DNA from: Apostichopus japonicus
Taxonomy: Eukaryota > Echinodermata > Holothuroidea > Aspidochirotida > Stichopodidae
DNA: 64,000 nucleotides
Direction: 5' to 3'
NCBI RefSeq assembly: GCF_037975245.1
Contig: NC_092568.1
Coordinates: 31,139,501-31,203,500, forward strand
Shown: positions 1-55,257 of the stretch, one piece after another
Layout of the letters: each line of letters starts with the position of its first letter
Position numbering within the stretch: position 1 is the stretch's first letter
Position numbers and translations under genes: made by a program
The notes under the pieces: model-generated
Database searches by the model: none
Seen by the model: the letters and a program-made list of their open reading frames with translations, nothing else
Told to the model about the DNA's origin: nothing

Positions 1-63
1 GCGGGAGACTGTAGTTAGATGGAAGACATCTCTAGGTCGCTGGTTCGATTCCGGCTCGAAGGA
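1..63 (+). tRNA. tRNA-Tyr(GUA), 5' end cut by window edge
   Basis: The window opens inside the anticodon stem region (GCGGGAGACTGTAG). The visible part, including intron and T arm, matches the array consensus. Confidence 0.85.
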
Positions 64-338
64 TTCCTTTTGCAAAGTCAAACATTTACCAGTTTTTATC
101 GACGTCATCAACTTGTAGCTCTATTTCAATAGCATTATGTTCCGGTGAAAACATGCACTGTAGATTTAGTTTTTACGATGTAATACCCACACAAACACAA
201 TGGAGGGGGGGGGGGGGGAGGGTTGATGACCCTGAAATTCACAACTGATATAGATTGAGTGTGTATGATGTTATTCGAATATTTTAACAAAAGGGTCGTA
301 AATTGATGTTATTGATGAGATTGCTTAATATCCAGTGT

Positions 339-426
339 CCTTCGATAGCTCAGTTGGTAGAGCGGGAGACTGTACTTAGATGGAAGACATCTCTATAGGT
401 CGCTGGTTCGATTCCGGCTCGAATGA
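339..426 (+). pseudogene. tRNA-Tyr pseudogene
   Basis: Position 37 is C instead of G. Two extra bases (TA) follow the anticodon stem, and the acceptor stem ends CGAATGA, so one acceptor pair is lost. Three independent changes make function unlikely. It has a twin at 4059. Confidence 0.8.
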
Positions 427-706
427 TTCCTTTTGCAAAAGTCAAACATTTACCAGTATTTATCGACGTCATCAACTAATTGTAGCTCTATTTCAATAGC
501 ATTATGCTCCGGTGAAAACATGCACTATAGATTTAGTTTTTACGATGTAATACCCACACAAACACAGTGGAGAGGGGGGAGGGGGGTGTTGACGACCCTG
601 AAATCCACAACTGGCTTAGATTTGGTTTGCAAGATGTTCTTCGAATATTTTAACAAAAAAGGGTCGTAAATTGATGTTATTGATGAGATTGCTTAATATT
701 CAGTGT

Positions 707-792
707 CCTTCGATAGCTCAGTTGGTAGAGCGGGAGACTGTAGTTAGATGGAAGACATCTGTAGGTCGCTGGTTCGATTCCGGCTCGAAGGA
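707..792 (+). tRNA. tRNA-Tyr(GUA), stem variant
   Basis: The 3' side of the anticodon stem reads TCTGT instead of TCTCT, placing a G-G mismatch at pair 28-42. The rest matches the consensus. Confidence 0.85.
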
Positions 793-1072
793 TTCCTTTT
801 GCAAAAGTCAAACATTTACCAGTATTTATCGACGTCATCAACTAATTGTAGCTCTATTTCAATAGCATTATGCTCCGGTGAAAACATGCACTATAGATTT
901 AGTTTTTACGATGTAATACCCACACAAACACAGTGGAGAGGGGGGAGGGGGGTGTTGACGACCCTGAAATCCACAACTGATTTAGATTTGGTTTGCAAGA
1001 TGTTCTTCGAATATTTTAACAAAAAAGGGTCGTAAATTGATGTTATTGATGAGATTGCTTAATATTCAGTGT

Positions 1073-1158
1073 CCTTCGATAGCTCAGTTGGTAGAGCGGG
1101 AGACTGTAGTTAGATGGAAGACATCTGTAGGTCGCTGGTTCGATTCCGGCTCGAAGGA
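1073..1158 (+). tRNA. tRNA-Tyr(GUA), stem variant
   Basis: It carries the same TCTGT change as the preceding gene, so the two adjacent units share descent. Confidence 0.85.
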
Positions 1159-1430
1159 TTCCTTTTGCAAAAGTCAAACATTTACCAGTATTTATCGACG
1201 TCATCATCTTGTAGCTCTATTTCAATAGCATAATGCTCCGGTGAAAACATGCACTATAGATTTAGTTTTTACGATGTAATACCCACACAAACACAGTGGA
1301 GGGGGGGGGGGGGGTTGATGACCCTGAAATCCACAACTGATATAGATTGAGTGTGTATGATGTTATTCGAATATTTTAACAAAAGGGTCGTAAATTGATG
1401 TTATTGATGAGATTGCTTAATATTCAGTGT

Positions 1431-1514
1431 CCTTCGATAGCTCAGTTGGTAGAGCGGGAGACTAGTTAGATGGAAGACATCTCTAGGTCGCTGGTTCGAT
1501 TCCGGCTCGAATGA
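1431..1514 (+). pseudogene. tRNA-Tyr pseudogene lacking two anticodon-loop bases
   Basis: The loop reads CTAG instead of CTGTAG, which removes part of the anticodon. The acceptor end is CGAATGA. It cannot decode Tyr. Its twin is at 5149. Confidence 0.85.
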
Positions 1515-1792
1515 TTCCTTTTGCAAAAGTCAAACATTTACCAGTATTTATCGACGTCATCAACTAATTGTAGCTCTATTTCAATAGCATTATGCTCCGG
1601 TGAAAACATGCACTATAGATTTAGTTTTTACGATGTAATACCCACACAAACACAGTGGAGAGGGGGGAAGGGGATGTTGACGACCCTGAAATCCACAACT
1701 GATTTAGATTTGGTTTGCATCATGTTCTTCGAATATTTTAACAAAATGGTCCTAAATTGATGTTATTGATGAGATTGCTTAATATTCAGTGT

Positions 1793-1878
1793 CCTTCGAT
1801 AGCTCAGTTGGTAGAGCGGGAGACTGTAGTTAGATGGAAGACATCTCTAGGTCGCTGGTTCGATTCCGGCTCGAAGGA
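1793..1878 (+). tRNA. tRNA-Tyr(GUA), consensus copy
   Basis: All exon positions and the intron match the array consensus, and TTTT follows. Confidence 0.93.
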
Positions 1879-2156
1879 TTCCTTTTGCAAAAGTCAAACA
1901 TTTACCAGTATTTATCGACGTCATCAACTAATTGTAGCTCTATTTCAATAGCATTATGCTCCGGTGAAAACATGCACTGTAGATTTAGTTTTTACGATGT
2001 AATACCCACACAAACACAGTGGAGAGGGGGGAAGGGGATGTTGACGACCCTGAAATCCACAACTGATTTAGATTTGGATTGCATCATGTTCTTCGAATAT
2101 TTTAACAGAAGGGTCCTAAATTGATGTTATTGATGAGATTGCTTAATATTCAGTGT

Positions 2157-2242
2157 CCTTCGATAGCTCAGTTGGTAGAGCGGGAGACTGTAGTTAGATG
2201 GAAGACATCTCTAGGTCGCTGGTTCGATTCCGGCTCGAAGGA
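2157..2242 (+). tRNA. tRNA-Tyr(GUA), consensus copy before a LINE-tail block
   Basis: Exons are consensus. The spacer after this gene switches to LINE 3'-end sequence about 48 bp downstream. Confidence 0.93.
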
Positions 2243-2290
2243 TTCCTTTTGCAAAAGTCAAACATTTACCAGTATTTATCGATGTCATGA

Positions 2291-2573
2291 ACTTGTTTTG
2301 TTAAGCCTGTATTGTTAAGCTTGTTTTGTTAAGTCATCAACTGTTTTGTTAAGCCAGCATAGGCTTTTCAGAAGACTTCCATTCACATTGTAAAATGTAT
2401 GTGAAAAAAACAAATAAATGAATGAATGAAATTGATGTTATTTATGAGATTGCTTAATATAGGCTTGTTTTGTTAAGTCATCAACTGTTTTGTTAAGCCA
2501 GCATAGGCTTTTCAGAAGACTTCCATTCACATTGTAAAATGTATGTGAAAAAACAAATAAATGAATGAATGAA
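2291..2573 (+). repeat. LINE 3'-tail block 1 in the array
   Basis: Two LINE 3' ends in direct orientation each carry a small AAGCC/AGGCTT hairpin, a GAAGACTTCC motif and a tail of AAATAAATGAATGAATGAA. They are separated by about 30 bp of array flank (ATTGATGTTATTTATGAG). The tail is clearly related to the 3' end of the LINE at 9434-11245 but differs in its terminal microsatellite. Confidence 0.8.
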
Positions 2574-2610
2574 GTTGATGTTATTGATGAGATTGCTTTA
2601 TATTCAGTGT

Positions 2611-2696
2611 CCTTCGATAGCTCAGTTGGTAGAGCGGGAGACTGTAGTTAGATGGAAGACATCTGTAGGTCGCTGGTTCGATTCCGGCTCGAAGGA
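2611..2696 (+). tRNA. tRNA-Tyr(GUA), stem variant
   Basis: It has the TCTGT anticodon-stem change and lies just after the LINE-tail block. Its immediate upstream flank reads CTTTATATTCAG. Confidence 0.85.
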
Positions 2697-2972
2697 TTCC
2701 TTTTGCAAAAGTCAAACATTTACCAGTATTTATCGACGTCATCAACTAATTGTAGCTCTATTTCAATAGCATTATGCTCCGGTGAAAACATGCACTGTAG
2801 ATTTAGTTTTTACGATGTAATACCCACACAAACACAGTGGAGAGGGGGAAGGGATGTTGACGACCCTGAAATCCACAACTGATTTAGATTTGGTTTGCAT
2901 CATGTTCTTCGAATATTTTAACAAAATGGTCCTAAATTCATGTTATTGATGAGATTGCTTAATATTCAGTGT

Positions 2973-3058
2973 CCTTCGATAGCTCAGTTGGTAGAGCGGG
3001 AGACTGTAGTTAGATGGAAGACATCTCTAGGTCGCTGGTTCGATTCCGGCTCGAAGGA
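2973..3058 (+). tRNA. tRNA-Tyr(GUA), consensus copy
   Basis: Exons and intron are consensus. The spacer that follows has an uninterrupted G-run. Confidence 0.93.
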
Positions 3059-3335
3059 TTCCTTTTGCAAAAGTCAAACATTTACCAGTATTTATCGACG
3101 TCATCAACTAATTGTAGCTCTATTTCAATAGCATTATGCTCTGGTGAAAACATGCACTATAGATTTAGTTTTTACGATGTAATACCCACACAAACACAGT
3201 GGAGAGGGGGGGGGGGGGGTTGACGACCCTGAAATCCACAACTGATTTAGATTTGGTTTGCAAGATGTTCTTCGAATATTTTAACAATAGGGTCCTAAAT
3301 TCATGTTATTGATGAGATTGGTTAATATTCAGTGT

Positions 3336-3421
3336 CCTTCGATAGCTCAGTTGGTAGAGCGGGAGACTGTAGTTAGATGGAAGACATCTCTAGGTCGCTG
3401 GTTCGATTCCGGCTCGAAGGA
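3336..3421 (+). tRNA. tRNA-Tyr(GUA), consensus copy
   Basis: Exons are consensus. The upstream flank has GGTTAATATT where most units have GCTTAATATT. Confidence 0.93.
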
Positions 3422-3697
3422 TTCCTTTTGCAAAGTCAAACATTTACCAGTATTTATCGACGTCATCAACTTGTAGCTCTATTTCAATAGCATTATGCTC
3501 CGGTGAAAACATGCACTGTAGATTTAGTTTTTACGATGTAATACCCACACAAACACAGTGGAGAGGGGGGAAGGGGATATTGACGACCCTGAAATCCACA
3601 ACTGATTTAGATTTGGTTTGCAAGATGTTCTTCGAATATTTTAACAAAAAAGGGTCGTAAATTGATGTTATTGGTGAGATTGCTTAATATTCAGTGT

Positions 3698-3783
3698 CCT
3701 TCGATAGCTCAGTTGGTAGAGCGGGAGACTGTAGTTAGATGGAAGACATCTCTAGGTCGCTGGTTCGATTCCGGCTCGAAGGA
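3698..3783 (+). tRNA. tRNA-Tyr(GUA), consensus copy at the block junction
   Basis: This consensus copy spans the join between the two 3.72-kb blocks and is the counterpart of the partial gene at the window start. Confidence 0.93.
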
Positions 3784-4058
3784 TTCCTTTTGCAAAGTCA
3801 AACATTTACCAGTTTTTATCGACGTCATCAACTTGTAGCTCTATTTCAATAGCATTATGCTCCGGTGAAAACATGCACTGTAGATTTAGTTTTTACGATG
3901 TAATACCCACACAAACACAATGGAGGGGGGGGGGGGGGAGGGTTGATGACCCTGAAATTCACAACTGATATAGATTGAGTGTGTATGATGTTATTCGAAT
4001 ATTTTAACAAAAGGGTCGTAAATTGATGTTATTGATGAGATTGCTTAATATCCAGTGT

Positions 4059-4146
4059 CCTTCGATAGCTCAGTTGGTAGAGCGGGAGACTGTACTTAGA
4101 TGGAAGACATCTCTATAGGTCGCTGGTTCGATTCCGGCTCGAATGA
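4059..4146 (+). pseudogene. tRNA-Tyr pseudogene (twin of 339)
   Basis: It has the same C37, TA insertion and acceptor mismatch as the copy 3720 bp upstream. Confidence 0.8.
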
Positions 4147-4426
4147 TTCCTTTTGCAAAAGTCAAACATTTACCAGTATTTATCGACGTCATCAACTAAT
4201 TGTAGCTCTATTTCAATAGCATTATGCTCCGGTGAAAACATGCACTATAGATTTAGTTTTTACGATGTAATACCCACACAAACACAGTGGAGAGGGGGGA
4301 GGGGGGTGTTGACGACCCTGAAATCCACAACTGGCTTAGATTTGGTTTGCAAGATGTTCTTCGAATATTTTAACAAAAAAGGGTCGTAAATTGATGTTAT
4401 TGATGAGATTGCTTAATATTCAGTGT

Positions 4427-4512
4427 CCTTCGATAGCTCAGTTGGTAGAGCGGGAGACTGTAGTTAGATGGAAGACATCTGTAGGTCGCTGGTTCGATTC
4501 CGGCTCGAAGGA
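4427..4512 (+). tRNA. tRNA-Tyr(GUA), stem variant
   Basis: TCTGT stem change, twin of 707. Confidence 0.85.
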
Positions 4513-4792
4513 TTCCTTTTGCAAAAGTCAAACATTTACCAGTATTTATCGACGTCATCAACTAATTGTAGCTCTATTTCAATAGCATTATGCTCCGGTG
4601 AAAACATGCACTATAGATTTAGTTTTTACGATGTAATACCCACACAAACACAGTGGAGAGGGGGGAGGGGGGTGTTGACGACCCTGAAATCCACAACTGA
4701 TTTAGATTTGGTTTGCAAGATGTTCTTCGAATATTTTAACAAAAAAGGGTCGTAAATTGATGTTATTGATGAGATTGCTTAATATTCAGTGT

Positions 4793-4878
4793 CCTTCGAT
4801 AGCTCAGTTGGTAGAGCGGGAGACTGTAGTTAGATGGAAGACATCTGTAGGTCGCTGGTTCGATTCCGGCTCGAAGGA
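4793..4878 (+). tRNA. tRNA-Tyr(GUA), stem variant
   Basis: TCTGT stem change, twin of 1073. Confidence 0.85.
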
Positions 4879-5148
4879 TTCCTTTTGCAAAAGTCAAACA
4901 TTTACCAGTATTTATCGACGTCATCATCTTGTAGCTCTATTTCAATAGCATAATGCTCCGGTGAAAACATGCACTATAGATTTAGTTTTTACGATGTAAT
5001 ACCCACACAAACACAGTGGAGGGGGGGGGGGGTTGATGACCCTGAAATCCACAACTGATATAGATTGAGTGTGTATGATGTTATTCGAATATTTTAACAA
5101 AAGGGTCGTAAATTGATGTTATTGATGAGATTGCTTAATATTCAGTGT

Positions 5149-5232
5149 CCTTCGATAGCTCAGTTGGTAGAGCGGGAGACTAGTTAGATGGAAGACATCT
5201 CTAGGTCGCTGGTTCGATTCCGGCTCGAATGA
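5149..5232 (+). pseudogene. tRNA-Tyr pseudogene (twin of 1431)
   Basis: Two anticodon-loop bases are missing and the acceptor end is altered, as in the twin. The defect therefore predates the block duplication. Confidence 0.85.
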
Positions 5233-5509
5233 TTCCTTTTGCAAAAGTCAAACATTTACCAGTATTTATCGACGTCATCAACTAATTGTAGCTCTATTTC
5301 AATAGCATTATGCTCCGGTGAAAACATGCACTATAGATTTAGTTTTTACGATGTAATACCCACACAAACACAGTGGAGAGGGGGGAAGGGATGTTGACGA
5401 CCCTGAAATCCACAACTGATTTAGATTTGGTTTGCATCATGTTCTTCGAATATTTTAACAAAATGGTCCTAAATTGATGTTATTGATGAGATTGCTTAAT
5501 ATTCAGTGT

Positions 5510-5595
5510 CCTTCGATAGCTCAGTTGGTAGAGCGGGAGACTGTAGTTAGATGGAAGACATCTCTAGGTCGCTGGTTCGATTCCGGCTCGAAGGA
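5510..5595 (+). tRNA. tRNA-Tyr(GUA), consensus copy
   Basis: Exons and intron are consensus; twin of 1793. Confidence 0.93.
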
Positions 5596-5873
5596 TTCCT
5601 TTTGCAAAAGTCAAACATTTACCAGTATTTATCGACGTCATCAACTAATTGTAGCTCTATTTCAATAGCATTATGCTCCGGTGAAAACATGCACTGTAGA
5701 TTTAGTTTTTACGATGTAATACCCACACAAACACAGTGGAGAGGGGGGAAGGGGATGTTGACGACCCTGAAATCCACAACTGATTTAGATTTGGATTGCA
5801 TCATGTTCTTCGAATATTTTAACAGAAGGGTCCTAAATTGATGTTATTGATGAGATTGCTTAATATTCAGTGT

Positions 5874-5959
5874 CCTTCGATAGCTCAGTTGGTAGAGCGG
5901 GAGACTGTAGTTAGATGGAAGACATCTCTAGGTCGCTGGTTCGATTCCGGCTCGAAGGA
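5874..5959 (+). tRNA. tRNA-Tyr(GUA), consensus copy before a LINE-tail block
   Basis: Exons are consensus; twin of 2157, with the second LINE-tail block downstream. Confidence 0.93.
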
Positions 5960-6007
5960 TTCCTTTTGCAAAAGTCAAACATTTACCAGTATTTATCGAT
6001 GTCATGA

Positions 6008-6290
6008 ACTTGTTTTGTTAAGCCTGTATTGTTAAGCTTGTTTTGTTAAGTCATCAACTGTTTTGTTAAGCCAGCATAGGCTTTTCAGAAGACTTCCATT
6101 CACATTGTAAAATGTATGTGAAAAAAACAAATAAATGAATGAATGAAATTGATGTTATTGATGAGATTGCTTAATATAGGCTTGTTTTGTTAAGTCATCA
6201 ACTGTTTTGTTAAGCCAGCATAGGCTTTTCAGAAGACTTCCATTCACATTGTAAAATGTATGTGAAAAAACAAATAAATGAATGAATGAA
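6008..6290 (+). repeat. LINE 3'-tail block 2 in the array
   Basis: This is the duplicated counterpart of the first block. It differs by ATTGATG where block 1 has ATTTATG in the short array segment between the two tails. Confidence 0.8.
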
Positions 6291-6327
6291 GTTGATGTTA
6301 TTGATGAGATTGCTTTATATTCAGTGT

Positions 6328-6413
6328 CCTTCGATAGCTCAGTTGGTAGAGCGGGAGACTGTAGTTAGATGGAAGACATCTGTAGGTCGCTGGTTCGATT
6401 CCGGCTCGAAGGA
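6328..6413 (+). tRNA. tRNA-Tyr(GUA), stem variant
   Basis: TCTGT stem change, twin of 2611. Confidence 0.85.
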
Positions 6414-6689
6414 TTCCTTTTGCAAAAGTCAAACATTTACCAGTATTTATCGACGTCATCAACTAATTGTAGCTCTATTTCAATAGCATTATGCTCCGGT
6501 GAAAACATGCACTGTAGATTTAGTTTTTACGATGTAATACCCACACAAACACAGTGGAGAGGGGGAAGGGATGTTGACGACCCTGAAATCCACAACTGAT
6601 TTAGATTTGGTTTGCATCATGTTCTTCGAATATTTTAACAAAATGGTCCTAAATTCATGTTATTGATGAGATTGCTTAATATTCAGTGT

Positions 6690-6775
6690 CCTTCGATAGC
6701 TCAGTTGGTAGAGCGGGAGACTGTAGTTAGATGGAAGACATCTCTAGGTCGCTGGTTCGATTCCGGCTCGAAGGA
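6690..6775 (+). tRNA. tRNA-Tyr(GUA), consensus copy
   Basis: Exons are consensus; twin of 2973. Confidence 0.93.
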
Positions 6776-7054
6776 TTCCTTTTGCAAAAGTCAAACATTT
6801 ACCAGTATTTATCGACGTCATCAACTAATTGTAGCTCTATTTCAATAGCATTATGCTCTGGTGAAAACATGCACTATAGATTTAGTTTTTACGATGTAAT
6901 ACCCACACAAACACAGTGGAGAGGGGGGGGGGGGGGTTGACGACCCTGAAATCCACAACTGATTTAGATTTGGTTTGCAAGATGTTCTTCGAATATTTTA
7001 ACAAAAAAGGGTCCTAAATTGATGTTATTGATGAGATTGGTTAATATTCAGTGT

Positions 7055-7140
7055 CCTTCGATAGCTCAGTTGGTAGAGCGGGAGACTGTAGTTAGATGGA
7101 AGACATCTCTAGGTCGCTGGTTCGATTCCGGCTCGAAGGA
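7055..7140 (+). tRNA. tRNA-Tyr(GUA), consensus copy
   Basis: Exons are consensus; twin of 3336. The spacer before it differs from its twin by AAAAAAG versus AATAG. Confidence 0.93.
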
Positions 7141-7416
7141 TTCCTTTTGCAAAGTCAAACATTTACCAGTATTTATCGACGTCATCAACTTGTAGCTCTA
7201 TTTCAATAGCATTATGCTCCGGTGAAAACATGCACTGTAGATTTAGTTTTTACGATGTAATACCCACACAAACACAGTGGAGAGGGGGGAAGGGGATATT
7301 GACGACCCTGAAATCCACAACTGATTTAGATTTGGTTTGCAAGATGTTCTTCGAATATTTTAACAAAAAAGGGTCGTAAATTGATGTTATTGGTGAGATT
7401 GCTTAATATTCAGTGT

Positions 7417-7502
7417 CCTTCGATAGCTCAGTTGGTAGAGCGGGAGACTGTAGTTAGATGGAAGACATCTCTAGGTCGCTGGTTCGATTCCGGCTCGAAG
7501 GA
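7417..7502 (+). tRNA. tRNA-Tyr(GUA), consensus copy
   Basis: Exons are consensus. This gene begins the third, broken copy of the higher-order block. Confidence 0.93.
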
Positions 7503-7780
7503 TTCCTTTTGCAAAGTCAAACATTTACCAGTTTTTATCGACGTCATCAACTTGTAGCTCTATTTCAATAGCATTATGTTCCGGTGAAAACATGCACTGT
7601 AGATTTAGTTTTTACGATGTAATACCCACACAAACACAGTGGAGAGGGGGGGGGGAAGGGGATGTTGACGACCCTGAAATCCACAACTGATTTAGATTTG
7701 GTTTGCATCATGTTCTTCGAATATTTTAACAAAAGGGTCCTAAATTCATGTTATTGATGAGATTGGTTAATATTCAGTGT

Positions 7781-7866
7781 CCTTCGATAGCTCAGTTGGT
7801 AGAGCGGGAGACTGTAGTTAGATGGAAGACATCTCTAGGTGGCTGGTTCGATTCCGGCTCGAAGGA
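7781..7866 (+). tRNA. tRNA-Tyr(GUA), C48G variant
   Basis: The variable region reads GGTGG instead of GGTCG, replacing C48, the partner of G15 in the Levitt pair. A LINE-tail block follows. Confidence 0.83.
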
Positions 7867-7914
7867 TTCCTTTTGCAAAAGTCAAACATTTACCAGTATT
7901 TATCGATGTCATGA

Positions 7915-8196
7915 ACTTGTTTTGTTAAGCCTGTATTGTTAAGCTTGTTTTGTTAAGCCATCAACTGTTTTGTTAAGCCAGCATAGGCTATTCAGAAGAC
8001 TTCCATTCACATTGTAAAATGTATGTGAAAAAAACAAATAAATGAATGAATGAAATTGATGTTATTGATGAGATTGCTTAATATAAGCTTGTTTTGTTAA
8101 GTCATCAACTGTTTTGTTAAGCCAGCATAGGCTTTTCAGAAGACTTCCATTCACATTGTAAAATGTATGTGAAAAACAAATAAATGAATGAATGAA
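7915..8196 (+). repeat. LINE 3'-tail block 3 in the array
   Basis: It shows the form used in the distal half of the array: AGGCTATTCAG in the first tail and TATAAGCTTG before the second. Confidence 0.8.
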
Positions 8197-8233
8197 GTTG
8201 ATGTTATTGATGAGATTGGTTAATATTCAGTGT

Positions 8234-8319
8234 CCTTCGATAGCTCAGTTGGTAGAGCGGGAGACTGTAGTTAGATGGAAGACATCTCTAGGTCGCTGAT
8301 TCGATTCCGGCTCGAAGGA
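8234..8319 (+). tRNA. tRNA-Tyr(GUA), T-stem/B-box variant
   Basis: The T arm reads CTGATTCGATT, changing G53 to A. This weakens the last T-stem pair and alters the B box. Confidence 0.78.
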
Positions 8320-8595
8320 TTCCTTTTGCAAAGTCAGACATTTACCAGTATTTATCGACGTCATCAACTTGTAGCTCTATTTCAATAGCATTATGCTCCG
8401 GTGAAAACATGCACTGTAGATTTAGTTTTTACGATGTAATACCCACACAAACACAGTGGAGAGGGGGGAAGGGGATGTTGACGACCCTGAAATCCACAAC
8501 TGATTTAGATTTGGTTTGCAAGATGTTCTTCGAATATTTTAACAAAAAAGGGTCGTAAATTCATGTTATTGATGAGATTGCTTAATATTCAGTGT

Positions 8596-8681
8596 CCTTC
8601 GATAGCTCAGTTGGTAGAGCGGGAGACTGTAGTTAGATGGAAGACATCTCTAGGTCGCTGGTTCGATTCCGCCTCGAAGGA
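8596..8681 (+). tRNA. tRNA-Tyr(GUA), T-stem variant
   Basis: The T stem 3' side reads CCGCC instead of CCGGC, changing position 64 and breaking its pair with C50. Confidence 0.78.
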
Positions 8682-8955
8682 TTCCTTTTGCAAAAGTCAA
8701 ACATTTACCAGTATTTATCGACGTCATCAACTTGTAGCTCTATTTCAATAGCATTATGCTTCTGTGAAAACATGCACTATAGATTTAGTTTTTACGATGT
8801 AATACCCACACAAACACAGTGGAGAGGGGGGAGGGGATGTTGACGACCCTGAAATCCACAACTGATTTAGATTTGGTTTGCATCATGTTCTTCGAATATT
8901 TTAACAAAAGGGTCCTAAATTCATGTTATTGATGAGATTGCTTAATATTCAGTGT

Positions 8956-9041
8956 CCTTCGATAGCTCAGTTGGTAGAGCGGGAGACTGTAGTTAGATGG
9001 AAGACATCTCTAGGTCGCTGGTTCGATTCCGGCTCGAAGGA
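8956..9041 (+). tRNA. tRNA-Tyr(GUA), consensus copy
   Basis: Exons and intron are consensus. Confidence 0.93.
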
Positions 9042-9320
9042 TTCCTTTTGCAAAAGTCAGACATTTACCAGTATTTATCGACGTCATCAACTTGTAGCTC
9101 TATTTCAATAGCATTATGCTCCGGTGAAAACATGCACTGTAGATTTAGTTTTTACGATGTAATACCCACACAAACACAGTGGAGAGGGGGGGGGGGAGGG
9201 GATGTTGACGACCCTGAAATCCACAACTGATTTAGATTTGGTTTGCATCATGTTCTTCGAATATTTTAACAAAAGGGTCCTAAATTCATGTTATTGATGA
9301 GATTGCTTAATATTCAGTGT

Positions 9321-9406
9321 CCTTCGATAGCTCAGTTGGTAGAGCGGGAGACTGTAGTTAGATGGAAGACATCTCTAGGTGGCCGGTTCGATTCCGGCTC
9401 GAAGGA
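9321..9406 (+). tRNA. tRNA-Tyr(GUA), variant just upstream of the LINE insertion
   Basis: It reads GGTGGCCGG where the consensus has GGTCGCTGG, so it has the C48G change plus U51C. The latter turns a U-G wobble into a C-G pair. A LINE interrupts its 3' flank 27 bp downstream. Confidence 0.82.
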
Positions 9407-9433
9407 TTCCTTTTGCAAAAGTCAAACATTTAC

Positions 9434-11245
9434 ATTTACATATCCAGTAACAGTAGAAGAAGTTTTAAAAGTTGCTCACACAAATGTGAAACCAAACAAA
9501 GCAGCAGGCTATGATGACTTTAAGCCAGGTATTATCAAACAAGTTATCCCATACATTGTAAAGCCTTTAACTCATCTCTGCAATATTTCTTTTAACACCG
9601 GCATTTTTCCGGATAAGCTTAAAATAGCAAAGGTAAAACCAATCTTTAAAAAAGGAGACCCCAGTCATTTTGAGAATTACCGCCCTATATCTTTATTGTC
9701 AGTCTTTTCAAAAATCATTGAACGATTAATGTTTAATCGTATATACAGTTTTCTATGTAAATATAATGTTCTTAATAACGAGCAGTACGGATTTCGTCCT
9801 GACCATTCTACAGAATTAGCTTTAGCAGATGCAGTCAACAATATTTATAATAGTCTTGATAAGAATAATACCTGTGTAGGCGTATTTCTCGACCTATCCA
9901 AAGCCTTTGACACCATCGATCACAAAATATTACTAAGTAAATTATTTTTTTTATGGTATCAGAGGAACAACCCTAAATTGGCTAGATAGTTATCTTTCAA
10001 ATAGATACCAGTACACTTTATATAAAAATTCTAAATCTGAACTTGCTAAAATCGCTTGCGGAGTTCCTCAGGGTTCTATACTAGGTCCATTACTATTTAT
10101 AATTTATGTCAATGATATCGTTAATGTCTCCGATATTGCTAAAACAATATTATTTGCCGACGACACAAATATTTTCTTCGATTCCCAAAATCTACTCTCA
10201 TCACATAAAACTGTTTCTACTGAACTAACTAAATTTTCCAGCTGGTTTGCAGCAAACAAATTATCTCTTAACATAGAAAAAACTAATTATATGGTGTTTA
10301 ATGCTAGTCACTCATTCAGATGGGATCACAATATTACCATGAATGATAAAATTATTAATCGGGTTAACACTACTAAGTTCTTGGGTGTACACATAGACAA
10401 TAAACTTTCGTGGCGTGATCACATATCAGCAGTCTGTAACAGAGTGGCTAGAAACACTGGTATTATATGCAAATTAAAACATCATTTACCTCCAAATATA
10501 CTCAGAACACTCTATATAACTCTGATTTTACCCCAAATAACTTATTGCACGACTATTTGGTCAGGAACCTATTCTACAAATCTTAATCACCTATGTGTCC
10601 TCCAGAAGAGAGCTATCCGCCATATATCACATGCTGCACCACGTGATCATACTACCCCATTATACAAAAGATTAAATTTATTAAAACTAAATGATATTAT
10701 AAGAGTCCAGCTTGCAACATTTGCATATAAAGCATGGAATGGATTGCTACCCGAGGCTTTTAAAGATTTTATATATAGTAATAGACTAATCCACAACCAT
10801 CAAACACGCCTTTGTAATAACGCCCATGTTTTATCCCAACGAAGTACTTTAAGTTCTTTTAACCCTCGTATTCGTGCTATAAAAACGTGGAATAATCTCC
10901 AGGATAATGTTAAGAATAAGCCTTCTTACTCTATATTCAAAAGGAATCTCCAAACTGTAATTATTTCTCACTATTGATGGATTTATTCTTGTGTGTGTTT
11001 GCGATTAAGATCATTATAAAGATTGTAAGGATTGCTTATTAACATAATTAATTTCAAGTAAAGTCAATTCGATTATTTCATCATTGTAGATGCTACTATT
11101 AACTTTTCTTTTTCTATTCTTAAGTTTTTCTTTCTTTTTCTTTTTGGGGAGTCTCCTACTTTGTTAAGCCTTACAGGCTTTATAGGAGACTTCCCGTCAC
11201 ACTGTAAATTGTGATGAAACAAATAAATATACAAATATACAAATA
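9434..11245 (+). mobile_element. 5'-truncated Jockey/CR1-group LINE inserted in the tRNA array
   Basis: The array flank GTCAAACATTTAC is interrupted and resumes as CAGTATTTATCG after 1.8 kb. The insert encodes only the reverse transcriptase and C-terminal part of ORF2. It ends in a hairpin (GTCTCCTA/TAGGAGAC) and an AAATATAC-type microsatellite tail. There is little or no target-site duplication. No endonuclease or ORF1 is present, as expected for 5'-truncated retrotransposition. Clade is judged from the RT motif style and is not certain. Confidence 0.88.
9435..10977 (+). pseudogene. LINE ORF2 fragment (reverse transcriptase), one frameshift
   Basis: The translation shows RT block A (FLDLSKAFDTIDH), block B (GVPQGSILGPLLF) and block C (FADDTN). 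A C-terminal region (NTTKFLGVHIDNKLSW) typical of non-LTR RTs runs to a stop at 10975-10977. The frame shifts at the T-run near 9945-9952: the upstream frame terminates at 9989, and a second open frame carries blocks B and C. It lacks the upstream endonuclease. A single frameshift in a homopolymer with otherwise open frames suggests a fairly young copy, or a sequencing error. Confidence 0.87.
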
Positions 11246-11267
11246 CCAGTATTTATCGATGTCATGA

Positions 11268-11549
11268 ACTTGTTTTGTTAAGCCTGTATTGTTAAGCTTG
11301 TTTTGTTAAGTCATCAACTGTTTTGTTAAGCCAGCATAGGCTATTCAGAAGACTTCCATTCACATTGTAAAATGTATGTGAAAAAACAAATAAATGAATG
11401 AATGAAATTGATGTTATTGATGACATTGCTTAATATAAGCTTGTTTTGTTAAGTCATCAACTGTTTTGTTAAGCCAGCATAGGCTTTTCAGAAGACTTCC
11501 ATTCACATTGTAAAATGTATGTGAAAAAACAAATAAATGAATGAATGAA
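11268..11549 (+). repeat. LINE 3'-tail block 4 in the array
   Basis: It lies only about 20 bp after the end of the truncated LINE, because that LINE inserted in the short flank between a tRNA gene and this pre-existing block. Confidence 0.8.
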
Positions 11550-11586
11550 GTTGATGTTATTGATGAGATTGCTTTATATTCAGTGT

Positions 11587-11672
11587 CCTTCGATAGCTCA
11601 GTTGGTAGAGCGGGAGACTGTAGTTAGATGGAAGACATCTCTAGGTCGCTGGTTCGATTCCGGCTCGAAGGA
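11587..11672 (+). tRNA. tRNA-Tyr(GUA), consensus copy
   Basis: Exons and intron are consensus. This is the first gene after the LINE and its adjoining LINE-tail block. Confidence 0.93.
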
Positions 11673-11950
11673 TTCCTTTTGCAAAAGTCAAACATTTACC
11701 AGTATTTATCGACGTCATCAACTTGTAGCTCTATTTCAATAGCATTATGCTCCGGTGAAAACATGCACTGTAGATTTAGTTTTTACGATGTAATACCCAC
11801 ACAAACACAGTGGAGAGGAGGGGGGGAGGGGATGTTGACGACCCTGAAATCCACAACTGATTTAGATTTGGTTTGCATCATGTTCTTCGAATATTTTAAC
11901 AAAAGGGTCCTAAATTCATGTTATTGATGAGATTGCTTAATATTCAGTGT

Positions 11951-12036
11951 CCTTCGATAGCTCAGTTGGTAGAGCGGGAGACTGTAGTTAGATGGAAGAC
12001 ATCTCTAGGTGGCTGGTTCGATTCCGGCTCGAAGGA
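11951..12036 (+). tRNA. tRNA-Tyr(GUA), C48G variant
   Basis: GGTGG replaces GGTCG in the variable region, and a LINE-tail block follows. Confidence 0.83.
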
Positions 12037-12084
12037 TTCCTTTTGCAAAAGTCAAACATTTACCAGTATTTACCGATTTCATGA

Positions 12085-12366
12085 ACTTGTTTTGTTAAGC
12101 CTGTATTGTTAAGCTTGTTTTGTTAAGTCATCAACTGTTTTGTTAAGCCAGCATAGGCTATTCAGAAGACTTCCATTCACATTGTAAAATGTATGTGAAA
12201 AAAACAAATAAATGAATGAATGAAATTGATGTTATTGATGACATTGCTTAATATAAGCTTGTTTTGTTAAGTCATCAACTGTTTTGTTAAGCCAGCATAG
12301 GCTTTTCAGAAGACTTCCATTCACATTGTAAAATGTATGTGAAAAAACAAATAAATGAATGAATGA
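12085..12366 (+). repeat. LINE 3'-tail block 5 in the array
   Basis: It follows a C48G tRNA. The flank reads TACCGATTTCATG where earlier blocks have TATCGATGTCATG. Confidence 0.8.
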
Positions 12367-12404
12367 AGTTGATGTTATTGATGAGATTGCTTTATATTCA
12401 GTGT

Positions 12405-12490
12405 CCTTCGATAGCTCAGTTGGTAGAGCGGGAGACTGTAGTTAGATGGAAGACATCTCTAGGTCGCTGGTTCGATTCCGGCTCGAAGGA
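12405..12490 (+). tRNA. tRNA-Tyr(GUA), consensus copy
   Basis: Exons and intron are consensus. Confidence 0.93.
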
Positions 12491-12767
12491 TTCCTTTTGC
12501 AAAAGTCAAACATTTACCAGTATTTATCGACGTCATCAACTTGTAGCTCTATTTCAATAGCATTATGCTCCGGTGAAAACATGCACTGTAGATTTAGTTT
12601 TTACGATGTAATACCCACACAAACACAGTGGAGAGCGGGGAAGGGGATGTTGACGACCCTGAAATCCACAACTGGCTTAGGTTTGGTTTGCAAGATGTTC
12701 TTCGAATATTTTAACAAAAAAGGGTCGTAAATTCATGTTATTTATGAGATTGCTTAATATTCAGTGT

Positions 12768-12853
12768 CCTTCGATAGCTCAGTTGGTAGAGCGGGAGATT
12801 GTAGTTAGATGGAAAACATCTCTAGGTCGCTGGTTCGATTCCGGCTCGAAGGA
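12768..12853 (+). tRNA. tRNA-Tyr(GUA), C32U and intron variant
   Basis: The loop begins TTGTAG, so position 32 is T, and the intron reads TTAGATGGAAAAC. All stems are kept. Confidence 0.85.
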
Positions 12854-13130
12854 TTCCTTTTGCAAAAGTCAAACATTTACCAGTATTTATCGACGTCATC
12901 AACTTGTAGCTCTATTTCAATAGCATTATGCTCCGGTGAAAACATGCACTATAGATTTAGTTTTTACGATGTAATACCCACACAAACACAGTGGAGAGGG
13001 GGGGGGGGGCTGTTGACGACCCTGAAATCCACAACTGATTTAGATTTGGTTTGCAAGATGTTCTTCGAATATTTTAACAAAAACGGGTCGTAAATTCATG
13101 TTATTGATGAGATTGCTTAATATTCAGTGT

Positions 13131-13216
13131 CCTTCGATAGCTCAGTTGGTAGAGCGGGAGACTATAGTTAGATGGAAGACATCTCTAGGTCGCTGGTTTG
13201 ATTCCGGCTCGAAGGA
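13131..13216 (+). tRNA. tRNA-Tyr-like gene with AUA anticodon
   Basis: The anticodon loop reads CTATAGA, so G34 becomes A and the anticodon is AUA. The T loop also reads TTTGATT, with C56 lost. C56 normally pairs with G19, so folding and the B box should both suffer. Confidence 0.78.
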
Positions 13217-13499
13217 TTCCTTTTGCAAAAGTCAAACATTTACCAGTATTTATCGACGTCATCAACTTGTAGCTCTATTTCAATAGCATTATGCTCCGGT
13301 GAAAACATGCACTGTAGATTTAGTTTTTACGATGTAATACCCACACAAACACAGTGGAGAGGGGGGGGGGGGGAAAGGGGATGTTGACGACCTTGAAATC
13401 CACAACTGATTTAGATTTGGTTTGCATCATGTTCTTCGAATATTTTAACAAAATGGTCCTAAATTCATGTTATTGATGAGATTGCTTAATATTCAGTGT

Positions 13500-13585
13500 C
13501 CTTCGATAGCTCAGTTGGTAGAGCGGGAGACTGTAGTTAGATGGAAGACATCTCTAGGTGGCTGGTTCGATTCCGGCTCGAAGGA
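13500..13585 (+). tRNA. tRNA-Tyr(GUA), C48G variant
   Basis: GGTGG replaces GGTCG, and a LINE-tail block follows. Confidence 0.83.
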
Positions 13586-13633
13586 TTCCTTTTGCAAAAG
13601 TCAAACATTTACCAGTATTTATCGATTTCATGA

Positions 13634-13916
13634 ATTTGTTTTGTTAAGCCTGTATTGTTAAGCTTGTTTTGTTAAGTCATCAACTGTTTTGTTAAGCCAG
13701 CATAGGCTATTCAGAAGACTTCCATTCACATTGTAAAATGTATGTGAAAAAAACAAATAAATGAATGAATGAAATTGATGTTATTGATGAGATTGCTTAA
13801 TATAAGCTTGTTTTGTTAAGTCATCAACTGTTTTGTTAAGCCAGCATAGGCTTTTCAGAAGACTTCCATTCACATTGTAAAATGTATGTGAAAAAACAAA
13901 TAAATGAATGAATGAA
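13634..13916 (+). repeat. LINE 3'-tail block 6 in the array
   Basis: It has the same layout as block 5, follows another C48G tRNA, and has one changed base at its start (ATTTGTTTTG). Confidence 0.8.
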
Positions 13917-13953
13917 GTTGATGTTATTGATGAGATTGCTTTATATTCAGTGT

Positions 13954-14039
13954 CCTTCAATAGCTCAGTTGGTAGAGCGGGAGACTGTAGTTAGATGGAA
14001 GACATCTCTAGGTCGCTGGTTCGATTCCGGCTCGAAGGA
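13954..14039 (+). tRNA. tRNA-Tyr(GUA), acceptor-stem variant
   Basis: The 5' acceptor strand reads CCTTCAA, so pair 6-67 is mismatched. Everything else is consensus. Confidence 0.82.
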
Positions 14040-14316
14040 TTCCTTTTGCAAAAGTCAAACATTTACCAGTATTTATCGACGTCATCAACTTGTAGCTCTA
14101 TTTCAATGGCATTATGCTCCTGTGAAAACATGCAGTGTAGATTTAGTTTTTACGATGTAATACCCACACAAACACAGTGGAGAGGGGGGAGGGGGGTGTT
14201 GACGACCCTGAAATCCACAACTGATTTAGATTTGGTTTGCATCATGTTCTTCGAATATTTTAACAAAAAAGGGTCGTAAATTCATGTTATTTATGAGATT
14301 GCTTAATATTCAGTGT

Positions 14317-14402
14317 CCTTCGATAGCTCAGTTGGTAGAGCGGGAGACTGTAGTTAGATGGAAAACATCTCTAGGTCGCTGGTTCGATTCCGGCTCGAAG
14401 GA
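14317..14402 (+). tRNA. tRNA-Tyr(GUA), consensus exons with intron variant
   Basis: Only the intron differs (GGAAAAC). The mature tRNA would match consensus. Confidence 0.92.
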
Positions 14403-14678
14403 TTCCTTTTGCAAAGTCAAACATTTACCAGTATTTATCGACGTCATCAACTAATTGTAGCTCTATTGCAATAACATTATGCTCCGGTGAAAACATGCAC
14501 TATAGATTTAGTTTTTACGATGTAATACCCACACAAACACAGTGGAGAGGGGGGGGGGGGGGTTGACGACCCTGAAATCCACAACTGATTTAGATTTGGT
14601 TTGCAAGATGTTCTTCGAATATTTTAACAATAGGGTCCTAAATTCATGTTATTGATGAGATTGGTTAATATTCAGTGT

Positions 14679-14764
14679 CCTTCGATAGCTCAGTTGGTAG
14701 AGCGGGAGACTGTAGTTAGATGGAAGACATCTCTAGGTCGCTGGTTCGATTCCGGCTCGAAGGA
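14679..14764 (+). tRNA. tRNA-Tyr(GUA), consensus copy
   Basis: Exons and intron are consensus; the upstream flank has the GGTTAATATT form. Confidence 0.93.
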
Positions 14765-15040
14765 TTCCTTTTGCAAAAGTCAAACATTTACCAGTATTTA
14801 TCGACGTCATCAACTTGTAGCTCTATTTCAATAGCATTATGCTCCGGTGAAAACATGCACTATAGATTTAGTTTTTACGATGTAATACCCACACAAACAC
14901 AGTGGAGAGGGGGGGGGGGCTGTTGACGACCCTGAAATCCACAACTGATTTAGATTTGGTTTGCAAGATATTCTTCGAATATTTTAACAAAAACGGGTCG
15001 TAAATTCATGTTATTGATGAGATTGCTTAATATTCAGTGT

Positions 15041-15126
15041 CCTTCGATAGCTCAGTTGGTAGAGCGGGAGACTGTAGTTAGATGGAAGACATCTCTAGGT
15101 CGCTGGTTCGATTCCGGCTCGAAGGA
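15041..15126 (+). tRNA. tRNA-Tyr(GUA), consensus copy
   Basis: Exons and intron are consensus. Confidence 0.93.
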
Positions 15127-15405
15127 TTCCTTTTGCAAAAGTCAAACATTTACCAGTATTTATCGACGTCATCAACTTGTAGCTCTATTTCAATAGCATT
15201 ATGCTCCGGTGAAAACATGCACTGTAGATTTAGTTTTTACGATGTAATACCCACACAAACACAGTGGAGAGGGGGGGGGGAAGGGGATGTTGACGACCTT
15301 GAAATCCACAACTGATTTAGATTTGGTTTGCATCATGTTCTTCGAATATTTTAACAAAATGGTCCTAAATTCATGTTATTGATGAGATTGCTTAATATTC
15401 AGTGT

Positions 15406-15491
15406 CCTTCGATAGCTCAGTTGGTAGAGCGGGAGACTGTAGTTAGATGGAAGACATCTCTAGGTCGCTGGTTCGATTCCGGCTCGAAGGA
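15406..15491 (+). tRNA. tRNA-Tyr(GUA), consensus copy
   Basis: Exons are consensus. The G-run of the next spacer is interrupted by a single T. Confidence 0.93.
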
Positions 15492-15764
15492 TTCCTTTTG
15501 CAAAAGTCAAACATTTACCAGTATTTATCGACGTCATCAACTTGTAGCTCTATTTCAATAGCATTATGCTCCGGTGAAAACATGCACTATAGATTTAGTT
15601 TTTACGATGTAATACCCACACAAACACAGTGGAGAGGGGGGTGGGGGGTTGACGACCCTGAAATCCACAACTGATTTAGATTTGGTTTGCATCATGTTCT
15701 TCGAATATTTTAACAAAAGGGTCCTAAATTCATGTTATTGATGAGATTGCTTAATATTCAGTGT

Positions 15765-15850
15765 CCTTCGATAGCTCAGTTGGTAGAGCGGGAGACTGTA
15801 GTTAGATGGAAGACATCTCTAGGTGGCTGGTTCGATTCCGGCTCGAAGGA
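15765..15850 (+). tRNA. tRNA-Tyr(GUA), C48G variant
   Basis: GGTGG replaces GGTCG, and the last LINE-tail block of the array follows. Confidence 0.83.
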
Positions 15851-15898
15851 TTCCTTTTGCAAAAGTCAAACATTTACCAGTATTTATCGATTTCATGA

Positions 15899-16182
15899 AC
15901 TTGTTTTGTTAAGCCTGTATTGTTAAGCTTGTTTTGTTAAGTCATCAACTGTTTTGTTAAGCCAGCATAGGCTATTCAGAAGACTTCCGTTCACATTGTA
16001 AAATGTATGTGAAAAAAAAACAAATAAATGAATGAATGAAATTGATGTTATTGATGAGATTGCTTAATATAAGCTTGTTTTGTTAAGTCATCAACTGTTT
16101 TGTTAAGCCAGCATAGGCTTTTCAGAAGACTTCCATTCACATTGTAAAATGTATGTGAAAAACAAATAAATGAATGAATGAA
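15899..16182 (+). repeat. LINE 3'-tail block 7 in the array
   Basis: It is the last block, with a longer A-run in the first tail. It is followed by three ordinary units before the array ends. Confidence 0.8.
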
Positions 16183-16219
16183 GTTGATGTTATTGATGAG
16201 ATTGCTTTATATTCAGTGT

Positions 16220-16305
16220 CCTTCGATAGCTCAGTTGGTAGAGCGGGAGACTGTAGTTAGATGGAAGACATCTCTAGGTCGCTGGTTCGATTCCGGCTCG
16301 AAGGA
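16220..16305 (+). tRNA. tRNA-Tyr(GUA), consensus copy
   Basis: Exons and intron are consensus. Confidence 0.93.
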
Positions 16306-16582
16306 TTCCTTTTGCAAAAGTCAAACATTTACCAGTATTTATCGACGTCATTAACTTGTAGCTCTATTTCAATAGCATTATGCTCCGGTGAAAACATGCA
16401 CTATAGATTTAGTTTTTACGATGTAATACCCACACAAACACAGTGGAGAGGGGGGAAGGGGATATTGACGACCCTGAAATCCACAACTGATTTAGATTTG
16501 GTTTGCAAGATGTTCTTCGAATATTTTAACAAAAAAGGGTCGTAAATTCATGTTATTTATGAGATTGCTTAATATTCAGTGT

Positions 16583-16668
16583 CCTTCGATAGCTCAGTTG
16601 GTAGAGCGGGAGACTGTAGTTAGATGGAAGACATCTCTAGGTCGCTGGTTCGATTCCGGCTCGAAGGA
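16583..16668 (+). tRNA. tRNA-Tyr(GUA), consensus copy
   Basis: Exons and intron are consensus. Confidence 0.93.
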
Positions 16669-16945
16669 TTCCTTTTGCAAAAGTCAAACATTTACCAGTA
16701 TTTATCGACGTCATCAACTTGTAGCTCTATTTCAATAGCATTATGCTCCGGTGAAAACATGCACTGTAGATTTAGTTTTTACGATGTAATACCCACACAA
16801 ACACAGTGGAGAGGGGGGAGGGGGGTGTTGACGACCCTGAAATCCACAACTGATTTAGATTTGGTTTGCATCATGTTCTTCGAATATTTTAACAAAAAAG
16901 GGTCGTAAATTCATGTTATTTATGAGATTGCTTAATATTCAGTGT

Positions 16946-17031
16946 CCTTCGATAGCTCAGTTGGTAGAGCGGGAGACTGTAGTTAGATGGAAGACATCTC
17001 TAGGTCGCTGGTTCGATTCCGGCTCGAAGGA
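16946..17031 (+). tRNA. tRNA-Tyr(GUA), consensus copy, last of the array
   Basis: Exons and intron are consensus. Its spacer is cut at the G-run near 17188, where unique sequence begins. Confidence 0.93.
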
Positions 17032-17188
17032 TTCCTTTTGCAAAAGTCAAACATTTACCAGTATTTATCGACGTCATCAACTAATTGTAGCTCTATTTCA
17101 ATAGCATTATGCTCTGGTGAAAACATGCACTATAGATTTAGTTTTTACGATGTAATACCCACACAAACACAGTGGAGAGGGGTGGGGA

Positions 17189-18177: not shown

Positions 18178-25704
<7,527 letters not shown>

Positions 25705-43700: not shown

Positions 43701-44037
43701 ATTGGGGAGTCTGGTCATCTTAATCTAACCCAGTCACATTTGAAATAAGCCGTAATAAATGATTAAGTTAGGGTAGGTTGGTTCCAACTAGAGTCTAATC
43801 AAACTTCAAAACAATACACTACTTTTGCCTGAGCGTTGGGAACAAAGCAGATTTTGATTAAAGAATCACCACTGTCATCTATATTCCTTATCTATGACAT
43901 TGATCATAACTATGAGCCCATATTTAAAGACAAATATACACTTTAACATAAGCAACTGATGTTTTCAAAATTCTTGTGTAACAAGGCACCAGTACCTTGA
44001 CCTCTACAGGTGAAAGGTGAAAGTCACATTATGTAAA

Positions 44038-44575
44038 GATAGGAGAGTAGGAATCGAGGTCAAGATTATTGTCATTTGATATAGAGCTCTCATACTAGAC
44101 CAGACTGTACTGAATAAGGGATATGCCTTTCTGATGTCACTCAGGACAGGATATTAAATATGATTCACTGTGTGACAAAAACCTCTTCCACCTATTGTGG
44201 GGCTTACTATAAGATAGGAGAGTAGGAATCGAGGTAAAGATTATTGTCATTTGATATAGAGCTCTCATATATACTAGACCAGACTACTGGATAAGGGATA
44301 TGCCTTTCTGATATCACTCAGGACAGGATATTAAATATGATTCACTGTGTGACAAAAACCTCTTCCACCTAAGAGTGGGGCTTACTATAAGATAGGAGAG
44401 TAGGAATCGAGGTCAAGACTTTTATTGTCATTTGATATAGAGCTCCCATATAAACTAGACCAGACTACTGGATAAAGGATATGCCTTTCTGATATCACTC
44501 AGGACAGCAAAATAACATTGTTTCATTGTGTGACAAAACCTTCTTCCACCTAAGAGTAGGCTAACTATACCTGAG
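44038..44575. repeat. About 178-bp tandem repeat, three copies
   Basis: GATAGGAGAGTAGGAATCG starts copies at 44038, 44213 and 44391. The last copy runs to within about 180 bp of the DNAAF10 stop, so the repeat probably forms part of its 3' UTR or flank. Confidence 0.88.
44421..44426 (-). promoter_or_regulatory. Candidate DNAAF10 polyadenylation signal
   Basis: TTTATT (AATAAA on the gene strand) lies about 330 bp past the stop, inside the third tandem-repeat copy. The matching positions of the other two copies lack it. Confidence 0.4.

Positions 44576-50851: not shown

Positions 50852-55257
<4,406 letters not shown>

What the first reader, a model, noticed from the sequence alone, without database searches (positions are those of the whole stretch)
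1..17188. Forty-one tRNA-Tyr(GUA) genes in a 17-kb tandem array
One isoacceptor gene is repeated every ~365 bp, in one orientation, with intron, internal promoter and TTTT terminator. Twenty copies keep consensus exons. Tandem tRNA arrays are known (Xenopus, zebrafish), but a near-pure tRNA-Tyr array of this density is notable. The array continues off the left edge, so the true size is larger.
Basis: partly seen in the sequence, partly recalled or inferred. Interest (0 to 1): 0.75.

Follow-up and report, generated by a model that had tools for sequence, protein, structure and literature searches.

The report
Tandem array of tyrosine tRNA genes
A stretch of an unnamed, probably animal genome carries 41 head-to-tail copies of one tyrosine tRNA gene, about half of them intact; the array looks real and recently rearranged, but arrays of this kind are already known in plants and in a few animals.

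Summary
Rfam's tRNA model matches 40 complete genes, all + strand, from 339 to 17031; a 41st is cut by the left edge. Of 40, 20 have consensus exons, one keeps its splicing pair through a double change, 5 lose the 15-48 contact, and 14 carry a stem mismatch, an anticodon plus B-box change or an indel. Best reading: a Pol III gene family homogenised by unequal exchange or conversion, about half the copies usable, single copies weakly constrained (p 0.025 and 0.034, but a window test is not significant). The Arabidopsis Ser-Tyr-Tyr cluster and Hydractinia tRNA arrays are close precedents. Expression, species and true size are unknown. New member of a known kind.

The parts
1..17182 (+). whole visible tandem array; continues beyond the left edge
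1..63 (+). left-truncated tRNA-Tyr gene; visible part is consensus
339..9406 (+). 25 complete tRNA-Tyr genes, starts 339, 707, 1073, 1431, 1793, 2157, 2611, 2973, 3336, 3698, 4059, 4427, 4793, 5149, 5510, 5874, 6328, 6690, 7055, 7417, 7781, 8234, 8596, 8956, 9321
   Evidence: Rfam RF00005; ARAGORN with introns
11587..17031 (+). 15 complete tRNA-Tyr genes, starts 11587, 11951, 12405, 12768, 13131, 13500, 13954, 14317, 14679, 15041, 15406, 15765, 16220, 16583, 16946
   Evidence: Rfam RF00005; ARAGORN with introns
1..3859 (+). first copy of the ten-gene higher-order block (period about 3.72 kb)
   Evidence: 4 substitutions and 3 indel events against 3721-7578; blastn 99.2% over 4063 bp including the diverged end
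3721..7578 (+). second copy of the ten-gene block (the two stretches overlap because they are periodic)
9435..11245 (+). reverse-transcriptase (LINE-like) element, its open frame broken near 9937-9989, inserted 3' of the gene at 9321; outer limits approximate
   Evidence: Pfam RVT_1 E 1.5e-16 and 4.3e-16 on the two pieces
2243..2610 (+). long spacer type (453-455-bp units) with two pieces of LINE-3'-tail-like DNA; same type at 5960-6327, 7867-8233, 12037-12404, 13586-13953, 15851-16219, and interrupted by the LINE at 9407-11586
   Evidence: 74-78% identity over 72-78 bp to the 3' end of the LINE
12768..12853 (+). copy with C32U together with intron -3 G to A, which keeps the anticodon-intron pair
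13131..13216 (+). copy with anticodon AUA and a B-box change at position 56 (C to U)

Best explanation
This is a tandem family of intron-bearing Pol III tRNA-Tyr(GUA) genes. Each standard unit is one gene plus about 275 bp of spacer. The family grew and is kept similar by unequal exchange and gene conversion; blocks of several units are copied at once, and good and damaged copies travel together. About half of the copies can make a normal tRNA-Tyr and probably add to the cell's tRNA-Tyr supply; redundancy lets the rest decay. Shown: gene anatomy, copy number in this assembly, a ten-gene block present twice, similarity that does not fall with distance. Inferred: the exchange mechanism, transcription, splicing, contribution to translation.
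For: 40 complete copies at or above Rfam's gathering score. 27 of 40 keep all 21 stem pairs (36 non-indel copies examined, the 4 indel copies counted as failing) and 20 of 40 have consensus exons. A box 36 of 36 and B box 34 of 36 non-indel copies; TTTT after 40 of 40. The C32-G(-3) anticodon-intron pair is C-G or U-A in 35 of 36. Among 32 standard units mean identity lies between 0.960 and 0.971 at each lag from 1 to 30 except lag 10 (0.981); 8 of 21 pairs at lag 10 and one of 22 at lag 5 reach 99%. The block copies differ by 4 substitutions and 3 indels in about 3859 bp. C48G occurs in 5 copies, each directly before a long spacer or the LINE-interrupted one (5 of 7 such genes), so gene and 3' spacer are copied together. 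Exon changes are fewer per site than flank changes: 12 in 73 sites against 71 in 233, p = 0.025.
Against: The sign of selection on exons is weak: after dropping 8 units of one block copy, site permutation gives p = 0.034; circular sliding windows put the gene 73rd of 361 (86 bp) and gene plus trailer 37th of 361 (106 bp), because the first part of the spacer is about as conserved. 14 of 40 copies carry a stem mismatch, an anticodon plus B-box change or an indel, and 5 more lose the 15-48 contact. By energy alone the precursor does not fold as a cloverleaf. No RNA, Pol III occupancy or other copies in the genome could be examined (no genome held).
Confidence: 0.72

Rival explanations
1. A mostly silent tRNA-bearing satellite: copies are amplified by exchange irrespective of function, and the cell's tRNA-Tyr comes from genes elsewhere.
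For: 14 of 40 copies are damaged; exon constraint is weak and its 86-bp window test is not significant; the Arabidopsis cluster is silent in most tissues (PMC12308677, abstract and sections).
Against: Half of the copies have consensus exons although diversity in spacer and upstream sites is about 3-5%; promoter boxes and terminators are almost fully kept; CpG observed/expected is 0.80 in the array (0.68 in the spacer part of the consensus) against 0.24-0.42 in the six 6-kb bins from 17183 to 53182, so there is no sign of long CpG methylation; but many animals methylate gene bodies only (recalled), so this is indirect.
Confidence: 0.2
2. Assembly artefact: a shorter array inflated by false duplication, above all in the ten-gene block at 1-7578.
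For: The two block copies differ by only 4 substitutions and 3 indels, two of the indels in G runs, which haplotypes or read errors could give.
Against: Outside lag 10 only one pair of units reaches 99% identity, and units differ by about 3% on average, so most of the array does not look like repeated assembly of one stretch.
Confidence: 0.07
3. A SINE family or SINE precursor: tRNA head joined to a LINE tail and spread by retrotransposition.
For: Seven spacers carry DNA 74-78% identical to the 3' end of the LINE in the array, beginning about 100 bp after the tRNA.
Against: Copies are head-to-tail with shared spacers; blastn at E 1e-3 finds no copy of the unit outside the array in the window; intron and T4 terminator are kept; standard spacers lack the tail.
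Confidence: 0.02

Closest known systems
Arabidopsis SYY (Ser-Tyr-Tyr) tRNA cluster (PMC12308677; abstract, introduction, one results section and part 1 of the discussion read)
   Same: Large array of intron-bearing tRNA-Tyr genes; a majority sequence plus minor and pseudogene copies (54 clustered Tyr genes: 32 major, 22 minor; 13 of the 54 tRNA-like); a core region that expanded by tandem duplication.
   Different: SYY units hold a tRNA-Ser and two tRNA-Tyr genes, meet heterochromatin and have high CG methylation; here each unit holds one Tyr gene, ordinary gene exons lie about 1 kb away and CpG is not depleted.
Hydractinia tRNA tandem arrays (PMC11067881; passages read)
   Same: Animal genomes; [quoted passage not shown]
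   Different: Their sequences were not compared here; whether this window is from a related animal is unknown.
Homogeneous tRNA gene clusters (survey PMC2888827; passages and the cluster section read)
   Same: Same isoacceptor, same orientation, neighbours under 1000 nt apart; clusters of fifty and more are reported in Nematostella and teleosts; drosophilids, Monosiga and Tetrahymena have mostly homogeneous pairs.
   Different: Pairs in Nematostella, clawed frog and zebrafish are mostly heterogeneous; this array is pure.
Human 1q23.3 tRNA variable-number repeat (PMC4041453; abstract read)
   Same: Tandem tRNA-bearing units, 9-43 per allele, with meiotic and mitotic instability.
   Different: Units of 7.3 kb that bind CTCF.
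Entamoeba tRNA gene arrays (PMC2652664; search listing with the start of the abstract only)
   Same: tRNA genes in tandem arrays.

Membership tests
Functional eukaryotic nuclear tRNA-Tyr gene | Cloverleaf with GUA anticodon scoring as tRNA | tested here: met
   40 complete copies at or above the Rfam gathering score; 37 of 40 called Tyr(gta); 27 of 40 keep all 21 stem pairs
Functional eukaryotic nuclear tRNA-Tyr gene | Intron at 37/38 with anticodon-intron pair | tested here: met
   13-nt intron; pair kept in 35 of 36 non-indel copies; the rule itself is recalled
Functional eukaryotic nuclear tRNA-Tyr gene | A box, B box, T-run terminator | tested here: met
   A box 36 of 36, B box 34 of 36 non-indel copies; TTTT after 40 of 40
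Functional eukaryotic nuclear tRNA-Tyr gene | Transcribed, spliced and aminoacylated | not testable with these tools
   no RNA data; no genome held
Homogeneous tRNA gene cluster (PMC2888827) | Same isoacceptor, neighbours less than 1000 nt apart | tested here: met
   38 of 39 intervals between complete genes; the 2266-bp one makes two clusters of 26 (with the truncated gene) and 15
Hydractinia-type tRNA tandem array (PMC11067881) | Tens or more near-identical copies with near-identical spacers of several hundred bases | tested here: met
   mean identity 96.7% over 32 standard units
Arabidopsis SYY cluster | Ser-Tyr-Tyr unit | tested here: not met
   no tRNA-Ser called in the window
Arabidopsis SYY cluster | Highly methylated repeat | tested here: inconclusive
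   CpG observed/expected 0.80 in the array speaks against, but is indirect
tRNA-derived SINE | Dispersed copies with LINE-like or A-rich tail | tested here: not met
   no unit copy outside the array in the window; the rest of the genome could not be searched

The most novel reading that the evidence does not exclude
A recently and still expanding single-isoacceptor tRNA-Tyr supply in an animal, kept to translate a tyrosine-rich product in particular cells, as the Arabidopsis cluster is proposed to do for a Ser-, Tyr- and Pro-rich extensin. The double change at 12768 and the joint occurrence of the AUA anticodon and a B-box change at 13131 would then be traces of selection on single copies.
Probability: 0.12. 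Interest if true: 0.6.

Novelty: new member of a known kind. Interest (0 to 1): 0.3.

Why it matters
It is a clean example of a pure one-isoacceptor tRNA array close to ordinary genes, with a near-identical block duplication. The intron and single-base variants tag individual copies, so small-RNA or Pol III data could tell which copies of a homogenised tRNA family are used. It does not change the picture of how tRNA genes are organised.

Tried and rejected
A fuzzy regular-expression scan timed out with no output; Rfam coordinates were used instead. A whole-genome count was impossible because no genome is held. Species: single exons match PSMA6 (best PDB chain 3unb_G, 42 of 60 aligned residues identical by my count), a seryl-tRNA synthetase and a mitochondrial fumarate hydratase; this suggests an animal but is no identification, and Hydractinia is a parallel from the literature only. 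G-quadruplexes as a driver: a simple motif occurs 4 times on the + strand of the array and not on its other strand, against 4 and 6 in the rest of the window; not pursued. Energy folding of the precursor gives no cloverleaf for the consensus or the variants tried (6 sequences: consensus z -2.60, the C42G variant -2.74, the two indel copies tried -0.85 and -0.61, 12768 -2.72, 14317 -2.85), so it separates the indel copies but says nothing against C42G. The Thr calls at 1431 and 5149 were rejected as real Thr genes. A search for a byssus link gave one paper, a review on noncanonical amino acids (listing). Ten paper searches, judged by the listed titles and abstract starts (15 of 167 listed, 10 of 31, 12 of 13, all in the others), showed no report of this particular array; most subscription papers are not held.
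Full report
What is there. Rfam's tRNA model matches 40 complete genes on the + strand from 339 to 17031, and no other family reaches its gathering score in the 64 kb. A 41st gene is cut by the left edge (1-63). ARAGORN with introns allowed finds the same 40: 37 Tyr(gta), 1 Tyr(ata), 2 Thr(agt). The two Thr calls are Tyr copies that lost two bases in the anticodon. Without introns ARAGORN finds none. Thirty-two of 39 start-to-start intervals are 356-369 bp, six are 453-455 bp and one is 2266 bp.

The genes. The common sequence has exons of 37 and 36 nt and a 13-nt intron, if the intron is placed at 37/38 by the usual rule (recalled; ARAGORN puts it after base 39 in most copies). Nineteen of 40 are identical throughout, and one more (14317) differs only in the intron, so 20 of 40 have consensus exons. 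Of the other 20: 12768 has C32U together with G to A at intron position -3, so that the anticodon-intron pair changes from C-G to U-A; five copies (7781, 9321, 11951, 13500, 15765) have C48G, losing the 15-48 contact (9321 also has a change at 51 that keeps its pair); six have C42G, making G28-G42; 8234, 8596 and 13954 each have one stem mismatch; 13131 has anticodon AUA and C56U in the B box; 339, 1431, 4059 and 5149 have indels. The pair table covers 36 copies; the 4 indel copies were left out of it and are counted here as damaged. Copy 14317, with C-A at the anticodon-intron pair, shows the unpaired state that 12768 lacks; this is one case and may be chance. If copy 13131 were expressed and its A34 became inosine, it could misread UAA (recalled wobble rules); it also carries a change at a base that is central to the B box (recalled).

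How the array evolves. Thirty-two standard-length units were compared; the 8 of other length (six long, one with the LINE-like element, the last one cut) were left out. Mean pairwise identity is 96.7%, lowest 93.0%, and does not fall with distance: at each lag from 1 to 30 the mean is 0.960 to 0.971, except lag 10 with 0.981, where 8 of 21 pairs reach 99%; one of 22 pairs does so at lag 5. Lag 10 reflects one block of ten genes present twice: 1-3859 against 3721-7578 differ by 4 substitutions and 3 indel events, two of these in G runs. The block reaches the left edge, so there may be more copies. Flat similarity with one fresh block copy is what unequal exchange and conversion give; the mechanism is inferred, no formal test was made, and false duplication in assembly is not excluded. 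C48G is found only in genes that directly precede a long spacer or the interrupted one (5 of 7 such genes), so gene and 3' spacer move as one.

Inserts. A reverse-transcriptase element lies at about 9435-11245 in the same orientation, with its two open pieces in different frames (Pfam RVT_1 on both). It splits the array into clusters of 26 and 15 by the 1000-nt rule. Six uninterrupted spacers, and the one that holds the element, are of a longer type with two pieces 74-78% identical over 72-78 bp to the 3' end of that element.

Constraint. On a tree of the 32 units, parsimony gives 12 changes in 73 exon sites, 2 in 13 intron sites, 2 in the 20 sites after the gene and 71 in 233 flank sites, the G tract left out (15 changes in 22 sites); exon against flank p = 0.025, gene plus trailer against flank p = 0.005, changes taken as independent. 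With 8 units of one block copy removed (24 left) diversity is 0.013 per site in exons, 0.012 in the intron, 0.008 in the trailer, 0.034 in the spacer and 0.051 upstream; site permutation p = 0.034. But among circular windows the gene ranks only 73rd of 361 (86 bp), and gene plus trailer 37th of 361 (106 bp), since the first part of the spacer is also quiet. So constraint on single copies is suggested, not proved. CpG observed/expected is 0.80 in the array and 0.68 in the spacer part of the consensus, against 0.24-0.42 in the six bins from 17183 to 53182 and 0.63-0.83 beyond. This speaks against long methylation but does not show activity.

Surroundings. About 1 kb beyond the right end lies an exon like seryl-tRNA synthetase on the - strand (18181-18534), then exons like fumarate hydratase (36108-36527) and proteasome alpha subunits, the second of them type 6 (52855-53199 and 53725-54093), on the + strand. 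These suggest an animal; the organism is not identified, and no genome is held.

Comparison. The Arabidopsis Ser-Tyr-Tyr cluster has 54 clustered intron-bearing tRNA-Tyr genes, 13 of them tRNA-like only, a core that grew by tandem duplication, silence in most tissues and activity in root-cap cells (PMC12308677; abstract, introduction, one results section, part 1 of the discussion). [quoted passage not shown]). A survey of 74 genomes describes homogeneous clusters, and clusters of fifty or more in Nematostella and teleosts (PMC2888827, passages and one section). In 50 plant species clusters of identical tandem tRNA genes reach 26 genes (PMC12652284, passages). A human tRNA repeat varies from 9 to 43 units (PMC4041453, abstract). 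Against these, the present array is a further member, purer than the mostly heterogeneous pairs of Nematostella, clawed frog and zebrafish.

Verdict.

Noticed in passing
29423-30573: A separate satellite: 130-bp unit, 8.8 copies, 97% matches.
   Followed up: no
44036-44569: A 181-bp tandem repeat with 3.0 copies, 91% matches.
   Followed up: no
about 202-222 and the matching place in the standard spacers: A G-rich tract varies in length and composition between units, and the right end of the array (about 17182) falls inside one.
   Followed up: partly
1-17182 against 17183-64000: CpG observed/expected is 0.80 in the array, 0.24-0.42 from 17183 to 53182, and 0.63-0.83 beyond.
   Followed up: partly
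2243-2610 and the other long spacers: Between the two LINE-tail-like pieces lies a 32-bp copy of the sequence that normally stands just upstream of the tRNA, with no tRNA after it.
   Followed up: partly
18181-18534 (-), 36108-36527 (+), 52855-53199 and 53725-54093 (+): Exons like seryl-tRNA synthetase, fumarate hydratase and proteasome alpha subunits.
   Followed up: partly
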